A stretch of 64,000 nt of DNA from Roseiflexus sp. RS-1 (GTDB lineage: Bacteria > Chloroflexota > Chloroflexia > Chloroflexales > Roseiflexaceae): positions 3,719,501 to 3,783,500 of the forward strand of contig NC_009523.1 in assembly GCF_000016665.1 (NCBI RefSeq), read 5' to 3'. The notes under the pieces were generated by a model that was not told the origin of the DNA, ran no database searches, and saw only the letters and a program-made list of their open reading frames with translations. Shown one piece after another: positions 61,217 to 64,000 of this stretch; position 1 is the first letter of the stretch, and each line of letters begins with the position of its first letter. A program made the position numbers and the translations under genes.

Positions 61217-61393
61217 TCTCAAGGGTAGATTTCTTGGGAGAGATCGGTGATCTTCTGCATTCCGGTGCGCGTTTGCCCCTCATCCCCCCTGCCCCCTTCT
61301 CCCACACGGGGAGAAGGGGGAGTCTGGGCATTCTGATGGCTGAAACGGGAGATGGCATACAGGGGCTTGCCGAAAAATCCACCCCTGTGAGGG
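61217..61393 (+). repeat. dispersed 170-180-bp repeat, copy C
   Basis: Same start (TCTCAAGGGTAGATTTCTTG) and hairpin as copy A. It truncates the HTH gene and ends where the 156-bp tandem repeats begin. Confidence 0.8.
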
Positions 61394-61394
61394 G

Positions 61395-62137
61395 AAGGGC
61401 TGGCGATTGACATCGCGCCGTGCAGGCGTTCCGCCGGGCGTCCGCCTTCGTGGACGCTGCCCCGTCCGCTGTGGCACGCGGTGGTTGGCGGGTTTGACAG
61501 AGGGAGGGGCTGGCGATTGACATCGCACCGTGCGGGCGTTCCGCCGGGGAAGGGGCTGGCGATTGACATCGCGCCGTGCAGGCGTTCCGCCGGGCGTCCA
61601 CCTTCGTGGACGCTGCCCCGTCCGCTGCGGCGAGCGGTGGTTGGCGAGTGTGAGGGGAGAGGGGCTGGCGATTGACATCGCGCCGCGCGGGCGTTCCGCC
61701 GGGGAAGGGGCTGGCGATTGGAAATCGCGCCGTGCGGGCGTTCCGCCGGGCGTCCGCCTTCGTGGACGCTGCCCCGTCCGCTGCGGCACGCGGTGGTTGG
61801 CGGGTTTGAGAGAGGGAGGGGTTGGCGATTGACATCGCGCCGTGCGGGCGTTCCGCCGGGGAAGGGGCTGGCGATTGGAAATCGCGCCGTGGGGGCGTTC
61901 CGCCGGGCGTCCACCTTCGTGGACGCTGCCCCGTCCGCTGCGGCACGCGGTGGTTGGCGGGTTTGAGAGAGGGAGGGGTTGGCGATTGACATCGCGCCGT
62001 GCGGGCGTTCCGCCGGGGAAGGGGCTGGCGATTGGAAATCGCGCCGTGGGGGCGTTCCGCCGGGCGTCCACCTTCGTGGACGCTGCCCCGTCCGCTGCGG
62101 CACGCGGTGGTTGGCGGGTTTGAGAGAGGGAGGGGTT
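61395..62137 (+). repeat. 156-157-bp tandem repeat, about 4.7 units, each with hairpins
   Basis: The marker GCGTCC(A/G)CCTTCGTGGACGC starts at 61438, 61594, 61750, 61907 and 62064. It folds into an 8-bp stem with a CTTC loop. Each unit also has one or two copies of a GGCGATTGACATCGCGCCGT sub-repeat. The last two units are almost identical. All six frames are open over long distances because of the repeat, and no frame is thought to be a gene. Confidence 0.85.
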
Positions 62138-62140
62138 GCT

Positions 62141-62328: not shown

Positions 62329-62433
62329 GGGGTAATTCCCTGCCTTGCAGGGCAGTGGTCGCTTCCGCGCGTGCGCTGGCGCCGTCGGCGCCGCGCCCCT
62401 ATCATCCTCTGCACTGCGGACAGTGGTCACTTC
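62329..62433 (-). CRISPR. two degenerate CRISPR repeats at the leader-distal end
   Basis: 62329-62365 ends in CAGGGCAGTGGTCGCTTC and 62397-62433 in CGGACAGTGGTCACTTC, both eroded on their left halves. They are 31 bases apart, and 37 bases separate the second from the first intact repeat. Decay at this end marks it as the old, trailer side of the array. Confidence 0.8.
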
Positions 62434-62470: not shown

Positions 62471-64000
62471 GTCTCAATCCCCTTCATTGCGGGGCAGTGG
62501 TCGCTTCCGGGGGGCAAGGAGGAAAGAAAAATGTTCTTTGAATTTGTTTCAATCCCCTTCATTGCGGGGCAGTGGTCGCTTCGCTTGCCTGGCGCAGGCG
62601 CCGGACGACGCGGACGTGTCTCAATCCCCTTCATTGCGGGGCAGTGGTCGCTTCTGTTTGGGGGGTGGTGGAGTGGAGGTACGACCTCCACGTCTCAATC
62701 CCCTTCATTGCGGGGCAGTGGTCGCTTCTTATCTTGGCGGACCGAAGGACGATGACGACGACGAGTCTCAATCCCCTTCATTGCGGGGCAGTGGTCGCTT
62801 CTGATAAACAGTTGGACCCGAGTGCGTATCGTTTATAAGTCTCAATCCCCTTCATTGCGGGGCAGTGGTCGCTTCAAGGGGACTAGTAGTCCCCGCCCCC
62901 CGCCGCGCTCGCCGTCTCAATCCCCTTCATTGCGGGGCAGTGGTCGCTTCCTTTCCAGACGCCGTCCTTGGGGGACGATTTTAAACTGGTTTCAATCCCC
63001 TTCATTGCGGGGCAGTGGTCGCTTCGGTCTCCCAGGCGATGGACAATCTCACGCCCTTCAAGGGTTTCAATCCCCTTCATTGCGGGGCAGTGGTCGCTTC
63101 CCATCGCCTGGGGGGTCCGGGTCTCCCCCAACAAGAAGTTTCAATCCCCTTCATTGCGGGGCAGTGGTCGCTTCCTATTATGGGATTCAAGTCTAAACGA
63201 CTGGCCCATCTTGTTTCAATCCCCTTCATTGCGGGGCAGTGGTCGCTTCGGAAACCGTGGGTCCGAGGTCGTGGGAACCGTCATGTTTCAATCCCCTTCA
63301 TTGCGGGGCAGTGGTCGCTTCCAAGCGCGGGCACAGAAGGAGATCGAATTGCGCAAGGTTTCAATCCCCTTCATTGCGGGGCAGTGGTCGCTTCCTGGGG
63401 CAAGGAGGAAAAATGGAAGCTCTGTTTTGTTTCAATCCCCTTCATTGCGGGGCAGTGGTCGCTTCGCCGCGCCGCCCGCCAGAGGAGGTATGAGATGAGT
63501 CATGTTTCAATCCCCTTCATTGCGGGGCAGTGGTCGCTTCCGCGCAACGAAAGGAGAACATATGAACCCGAATATTCATGTTTCAATCCCCTTCATTGCG
63601 GGGCAGTGGTCGCTTCTCCGCTTACAAGGCTCTGGGTACGCCAGATGAGCCTACGTGTTTCAATCCCCTTCATTGCGGGGCAGTGGTCGCTTCACTCGAT
63701 ATTACAGGTCGTATTGCAGGGTTTGCCAAGTTTGTTTCAATCCCCTTCATTGCGGGGCAGTGGTCGCTTCCCCTCGGGATGCTTGCTCTCCTGGCAGGAG
63801 GCCTTTTTGTTTCAATCCCCTTCATTGCGGGGCAGTGGTCGCTTCCTGCAGACCATAGTATCGTTAGTAACGGGGGTTTTTTGTTTCAATCCCCTTCATT
63901 GCGGGGCAGTGGTCGCTTCCCTTTTTAGCCCCTTTTGTGCCGGTGATTGTTTTCCTTGTTTCAATCCCCTTCATTGCGGGGCAGTGGTCGCTTCGATTTC
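62471..64000 (-). CRISPR. CRISPR array, 21 intact 37-bp repeats, 20 full spacers, continues past the right edge
   Basis: On the plus strand the repeat begins GTTTCAATCCCCTTCATTGC and ends GGGGCAGTGGTCGCTTC. Intact copies start at 62471, 62546, 62618, 62692, 62765, 62839, 62914, 62989, 63064, 63138, 63213, 63285, 63358, 63429, 63504, 63580, 63657, 63734, 63809, 63883 and 63958. Spacers are 34-40 bp. On the minus strand the repeat ends ATTGAAAC, the usual crRNA 5' handle of type I-B/III-like systems, so transcription is inferred right to left with the leader beyond 64000. Repeats 1 and 3-7 have GTCTC instead of GTTTC, changing the handle to ATTGAGAC. No cas gene is in the window, so the type is not settled. 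Confidence 0.97.

What the first reader, a model, noticed from the sequence alone, without database searches (positions are those of the whole stretch)
62508..63579. CRISPR spacers that capture translation-initiation sites
Four of 20 spacers contain a strong Shine-Dalgarno sequence followed at 4-8 bases by ATG, all in the same plus-strand orientation. Spacer 1 (62508-62545) has AAGGAGG then ATG. Spacer 13 (63395-63428) has AAGGAGG-AAAA-ATG. Spacer 14 (63466-63503) has AGGAGG-TATGAG-ATG. Spacer 15 (63541-63579) has AAAGGAG-AACAT-ATG. Spacers 1 and 13 also share GGCAAGGAGGAAA although their coding parts differ, as if two genes of one phage family were sampled. Since the array is inferred to be read from the minus strand, the crRNAs would be antisense to these messages and would cover the ribosome-binding site. 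That suits an RNA-targeting (type III-like) effector and hints at acquisition or selection favouring start regions, possibly even acquisition from RNA.
Basis: partly seen in the sequence, partly recalled or inferred. Interest (0 to 1): 0.82.

Follow-up and report, generated by a model that had tools for sequence, protein, structure and literature searches.

The report
RNA-recording CRISPR array capturing gene starts
This is a CRISPR memory array beside a reverse transcriptase, and its stored fragments come overwhelmingly from the message-sense strand of unknown invaders and include ribosome-binding start sites far more often than chance, which fits memory written from RNA; most of the start-site excess, however, comes from repeated sampling of one invader leader sequence.

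Summary
Confirmed: spacers 1, 13, 14 and 15 carry Shine-Dalgarno (SD) plus ATG at the stated coordinates, all on the plus strand. The array continues past the window (58 spacers), and a sister array with the same repeat has 86. Of 139 unique spacers, 9 hold AGGAG-N3-10-ATG in sense and 1 in antisense (shuffle mean 0.42). Two other arrays of the same genome give 2/106 and 0/98. A codon model puts about 91% of spacers in sense. The leader lies on the right, so crRNAs are antisense. About 5 kb beyond it lie cas1, a stand-alone group-II-like reverse transcriptase (RT) and an RNase H gene, then CARF and Csm6 genes. Related RT-linked arrays repeat the strand bias: similar spacer pairs agree in strand 46:2. 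Their SD-ATG rate is only 1.7%, about what sampling of compact sense RNA would give. The excess here comes largely from one leader family (CCGCCGCAMGGCGG-GGGGGCAAGGAGGA...ATGGAAG) hit by eight spacers. Best reading: RT-dependent memory of sense RNA, probably RNA-virus or phage transcripts. A special preference for start sites is not shown; ATG placement is unphased; the source was not found. By-product: an RNase H gene upstream of the RT in 13 of 13 genomes.

The parts
62471..64000 (-). CRISPR array, 37-nt repeat (sense orientation GTTTCAATCCCCTTCATTGCGGGGCAGTGGTCGCTTC), transcribed on the minus strand; continues 2.8 kb beyond the window (to genome 3786321; 58 spacers in all)
   Evidence: Repeats read directly; leader on the right shared with the sister array; Rfam CRISPR-DR10 on minus strand
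62508..62545 (+). Spacer 1: leader GGGGGGCAAGGAGGAAAGAAAA then ATG TTC TTT GAA TTT (MFFEF)
   Evidence: homologous start region captured by another species of the genus (G011: GGGAGGAAGAAATGTTCTTCGAAATC)
63395..63428 (+). Spacer 13: GGGGCAAGGAGGAAAA-ATG GAA GCT CTG TTT T, same leader family
63466..63503 (+). Spacer 14: AGAGGAGG-TATGAG-ATG AGT CAT
63541..63579 (+). Spacer 15: AAAGGAG-AACAT-ATG AAC CCG AAT ATT CAT
62350..62365 (.). Decayed repeat remnant GGGCAGTGGTCGCTTC, leader-distal (old) end
62413..62433 (.). Second decayed repeat remnant ACTGCGGACAGTGGTCACTTC
   Evidence: Read

Best explanation
The array is the memory of an RT-equipped (type III-like) CRISPR adaptation module. Fragments of about 36-40 nt are taken from sense RNA of invaders (RNA-virus genomes or highly expressed phage transcripts), copied by the stand-alone RT, freed of RNA by the neighbouring RNase H, and integrated by Cas1 next to the right-hand leader. 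They are kept mainly in the orientation that yields antisense crRNA. Start sites appear because the sampled RNAs are compact and rich in SD leaders, and because one structured 5' leader family (GC hairpin, G-run, GCAAGGAGGA, ATGGAAG) was sampled repeatedly from diverging variants. Shown: sense bias, motif enrichment, gene neighbourhood, conserved RNase H-RT pairing. Inferred: copying from RNA, the role of RNase H, the effector used, and the nature of the invaders.
For: SD-ATG 9 sense: 1 antisense, shuffle mean 0.42; absent or rare in two other arrays of the genome. Codon model.7% of spacers sense where pure sense DNA gives 67.9%, versus 47% in a control array. RT, Cas1, CARF and Csm6 genes lie beside the array, and the RT is conserved in relatives. 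One relative (G028) has Cas10, Cmr3, Cas6, Cas1, RT and a 155-repeat array within about 34 kb. In five relatives' arrays similar spacer pairs agree in strand 46:2, 40 of the 46 with shifted ends, so not duplications. Hairpins of 5 bp or more in 33% of RT-array spacers vs 22% of controls, p = 0.002. G028 holds two sense tRNA-like pieces. RNase H upstream of the RT in 13 of 13 genomes, acidic active-site motifs conserved.
Against: No protospacer found in 50,697 phages, in IMG/VR by seven patterns (one chance-level hit) or in family genomes. Strand bias in type III systems can arise from selection alone without RT (PMC7515739). One SD spacer is antisense. In Marinomonas, RT-Cas1 acquires in either orientation without preferred RNA regions (PMC11014452). 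The array of G145 shows little strand bias. No Cas2 was recognised next to Cas1.
Confidence: 0.72

Rival explanations
1. Spacers are acquired from both strands of DNA, and the sense bias is left by selection, because only antisense crRNAs let a type III effector recognise transcripts. Start regions are over-represented because early, strongly transcribed genes protect best.
For: Shown in Thermus without any RT: unique spacers unbiased, surviving spacers strongly biased (PMC7515739). Several type III effector loci exist in this genome.
Against: Does not explain the linked RT and RNase H in every relative, the tRNA-like pieces, the hairpin enrichment, or the near-absence of opposite-strand pairs (46:2). 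A type I-B array near type III genes shows no SD-ATG (0/98).
Confidence: 0.22
2. The start-site excess is a sampling effect: one invader family with a conserved SD leader was met many times, and start sites are otherwise sampled at the background rate. (Compatible with the main explanation; it concerns the excess only.)
For: Eight spacers share the leader. Other RT-linked arrays give only 1.7%. After collapsing, 6/136 vs 8/471, p = 0.10.
Against: Five further SD-ATG spacers of this genome do not belong to the core leader family, and the pooled other arrays still exceed shuffles (8 vs 1.29). It does not explain the strand bias.
Confidence: 0.6
3. Initiating ribosomes protect the start region from nucleases and so feed 35-40-nt footprints to the RT.
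For: Spacer length is close to that of an initiation footprint (own knowledge); SD and ATG are both inside the spacers; RT arrays are rich in structured sequence.
Against: ATG position runs from 13 to 35 with no phase (KS p = 0.27); the rate in other RT arrays is not raised beyond random sense sampling.
Confidence: 0.08

Closest known systems
RT-CRISPR clade 9, Chloroflexi (Toro et al. 2017, PMC5541045)
   Same: Stand-alone group-II-like RT beside cas1 and an array, no effector genes adjacent; that paper lists three such records
   Different: That paper has no complete clade-9 operon and does not mention RNase H. Here a relative has a III-B effector set in the same contig and an RNase H gene accompanies the RT in 13 of 13 genomes
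Marinomonas mediterranea type III-B RT-Cas1 (PMC5576922, PMC11014452)
   Same: RT-assisted adaptation in a type III context
   Different: There RT is fused to Cas1 and acquisition is in either orientation without preferred RNA regions; here RT is separate, with strong sense bias and an RNase H partner
Arthrospira RT-linked III-B arrays (Silas et al. 2017, PMC5513706)
   Same: Large RT-linked spacer sets with no traceable source
   Different: Here the spacers themselves reveal strand and a shared leader without any protospacer
Roseiflexus RT-CRISPR spacers matching hot-spring RNA viruses and viroid-like RNAs (Neri et al. 2022, Lee et al. 2023; own memory, not held)
   Same: Probably this very organism and array type
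   Different: I could not check which spacers matched; start-site and strand statistics are not known to me from those papers

Membership tests
RT-CRISPR clade 9 | Group-II-like RT separate from Cas1, next to cas1 and an array | tested here: met
   array-to-cas1 distance about 5 kb
RT-CRISPR clade 9 | RT falls in the clade-9 branch of the RT tree | not tested
   No reference tree was built; placement rests on presumed phylum and architecture
Type III CRISPR-Cas | Cas10 effector complex encoded with the array | tested here: inconclusive
   None adjacent; three Cas10 loci over cut-off elsewhere, two with III-D type subunits; a relative's III-B set shares the contig with RT and array
Type III CRISPR-Cas | CARF/HEPN signalling genes near cas genes | tested here: met
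   CARF-TM and Csx1/Csm6
RNA-acquiring CRISPR | Spacers derive from RNA | not testable with these tools
   Only indirect: sense bias, hairpins, tRNA-like pieces
CRISPR targeting RNA viruses | Spacers match RNA-virus genomes | not testable with these tools
   No RNA-virus metatranscriptome set is held; DNA collections negative

The most novel reading that the evidence does not exclude
RT-CRISPR adaptation in these bacteria preferentially captures translation-initiation regions and structured leaders of invader RNA (ribosome- or fold-protected fragments), aided by a dedicated RNase H, so that crRNAs mask ribosome-binding sites.
Probability: 0.12. Interest if true: 0.85.

Novelty: new variant of a known kind. 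Interest (0 to 1): 0.58.

Why it matters
Sources of RT-linked spacers have been called enigmatic (PMC5513706). Here the spacers alone, without any protospacer, show that one strand is recorded, that translated and structured RNA is sampled, and that one leader family recurs. That gives a sequence tag for fishing the invader out of hot-spring metatranscriptomes. The constant RNase H-RT-Cas1 neighbourhood suggests a concrete order of steps (copy, strip RNA, second strand, integrate) that differs from the RNA/cDNA duplex integration described for Marinomonas, and it can be tested.

Tried and rejected
Compositional artefact: rejected by dinucleotide shuffles. General property of the genome's arrays: rejected by two control arrays; the third, small array (repeat CGGTTCACCCCCACG...) was left out because my repeat trimming was wrong for it. 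Self-derived spacers: no convincing own-genome matches. DNA prophage or plasmid source of the leader: absent from 26 family genomes apart from the arrays themselves and two 2-mismatch chance hits; 13 hits in unrelated species of genome contigs, judged chance. RNA-phage and DNA-phage yardsticks (MS2, phi6, Galaxy) gave 0-1.3% SD-ATG windows, not 6.5%. Ribosome-footprint phasing: not seen. Array duplication as cause of same-strand pairs: 40 of 46 pairs have shifted ends. G036 and G137 arrays were left out of pooled counts because repeat orientation was uncertain (G036 has one antisense hit as oriented).

Full report
Setting. The window is genome positions 3719501-3783500 of a single 5,801,598-base contig. 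The array runs from window 62471 to genome 3786321 and holds 58 spacers. A sister array with the same repeat (86 spacers) lies at 3151615-3158050 on the other strand. After removing duplicates 139 spacers remain.

Observation. The four motifs and coordinates are exact. In all 139 spacers AGGAG-N3-10-ATG occurs 9 times in sense and once in antisense; 1000 dinucleotide shuffles give a mean of 0.42 and a maximum of 4. Two other arrays of the genome give 2/106 and 0/98. The second of these is type I-B by Cas8b and Cas3; the first was not typed. The antisense case is spacer 55 of the same array, which reads GGCGGGTGGGCAAGGAGAAAGGAAATGGAAACG when reversed.

Orientation. The flank to the right of both arrays is 96% identical over 700 bases, starting next to the last repeat, while the left flanks are only partly similar. 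Decayed repeats lie on the left of array 1. The leader is therefore on the right and crRNAs read from the minus strand, in agreement with the Rfam model's strand. They are antisense to the SD-bearing messages.

Sense bias beyond the motif. A codon-usage model trained on host genes.7% of spacers sense (p = 0.0006). It.9% on true sense 38-mers, so about 91% of spacers would be sense (my arithmetic). The untyped control array gives 47%. The I-B array gives 38% as printed, p = 0.02, a weak bias.

Neighbourhood. About 5 kb right of the leader, on the minus strand, lie cas1 (398 aa), an RT (444 aa, FMDD motif, an insertion of roughly 110 aa) and an RNase H-like protein (250 aa), followed by PDC-S70-like and UPF0175 genes, CARF-TM, WYL and Csx1/Csm6 genes. 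No Cas10 is adjacent; three Cas10 loci over the cut-off lie elsewhere, two with III-D type subunits. This fits the description of RT-CRISPR clade 9, Chloroflexi (PMC5541045), though no tree was built here.

Relatives. The RT is found in 19 of 400 genomes of the phylum at E <= 1e-70. Eleven RT-linked arrays with homologous repeats gave 471 further spacers. SD-ATG: 8 sense, 3 antisense, shuffle means 1.29 and 0.83. In the five larger arrays similar spacer pairs agree in strand 46:2, with 40 of 46 showing shifted ends, so they are not array duplications; shuffles give about none. In the window's genome the ratio is 26:14, weaker, perhaps because its spacers are very GC-rich and hairpin-rich. G028 carries Cas10, Cmr3, Cas6, Cas1, RT, RNase H and a 155-repeat array in one contig stretch, and two of its spacers look like sense pieces of tRNA (not confirmed by a tRNA model). 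G145 shows almost no strand bias, so the property is not universal.

The leader family. Spacers 1, 13 and 55 of this array and 7, 14, 15, 25 and 47 of the sister array align on CCGCCGCAMGGCGG-GGGGGCAAGGAGGA; four of the five that reach a start codon continue to ATGGAA, but spacer 1 continues to ATGTTCTTTGAA. The latter also appears in another species of the genus. So at least two genes share the leader, as in segmented RNA genomes or repeated intergenic elements (inference). Two overlapping neighbours (14 and 15) cover 62 contiguous bases. Collapsing this family leaves 6/136, not clearly above the other RT arrays (p = 0.10).

Structure. RT-array spacers hold Watson-Crick hairpins of 5 bp or more in 33% of cases, control arrays in 22% (p = 0.002). 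GNRA/UNCG loops on such stems are 7 sense to 0 antisense, but this is one of several tests tried, and folding z-scores alone did not separate the sets clearly.

Source. None found in phage records, in IMG/VR patterns, or in family genomes. This is compatible with RNA replicons absent from DNA collections but does not prove it; most spacers anywhere have no match (PMC5513706). Published work, read only as cited in other papers, reports riboviruses targeted by RT-type III systems (PMC10847044) and a CRISPR-targeted circular RNA in Yellowstone springs (PMC13096302).

Mechanism. Sense RNA is copied by the RT, RNA is removed by RNase H, a second strand is made and Cas1 integrates next to the leader; antisense crRNAs are retained. 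All of these steps are inferred from gene content and spacer statistics. Selection alone can produce strand bias (PMC7515739), so acquisition bias and selection cannot be separated here. No positional phase of the ATG was found, which speaks against ribosome footprints. The claim that start regions are favoured as such is therefore not supported beyond the leader family.

Noticed in passing
L017:12764-13516 (genome 3794264-3795016) and 12 relatives: An RNase H-like gene with conserved acidic active-site motifs lies upstream of the CRISPR RT on the same strand (52-2444 bases) in 13 of 13 genomes; in nine it is the genome's only hit to that family. Its absence in RT-lacking relatives was not tested.
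   Followed up: partly
L017:11397-12731, residues about 195-312: The RT carries an insertion of about 110 residues just before the motif GVPQGGALSPLL, also suggested in the G028 RT.
   Followed up: no
Sister array spacers 14/15, 48/49, 54/55; G028 array 9/10, 44/45: Neighbouring spacers overlap in target sequence on the same strand, as if two fragments of one RNA were taken in succession.
   Followed up: partly
Sister array spacers 39-42 = 58-61: A four-spacer block is duplicated within the array.
   Followed up: no
window 61347-62138: Five head-to-tail copies of a 157-base GC-rich unit directly left of the array.
   Followed up: no
genome 3786322 onward and 3151614 downward: Both arrays share not only the leader but the following sequence, 96% identical over 700 bases, as if array and neighbour gene were duplicated together.
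   Followed up: no
G028 array spacers 3 and 130 (L115): Two spacers look like sense pieces of tRNA (GGTTGTAGCTCAGTTGGTAG and GGTTCGATTCC); origin host or phage not determined.
   Followed up: partly
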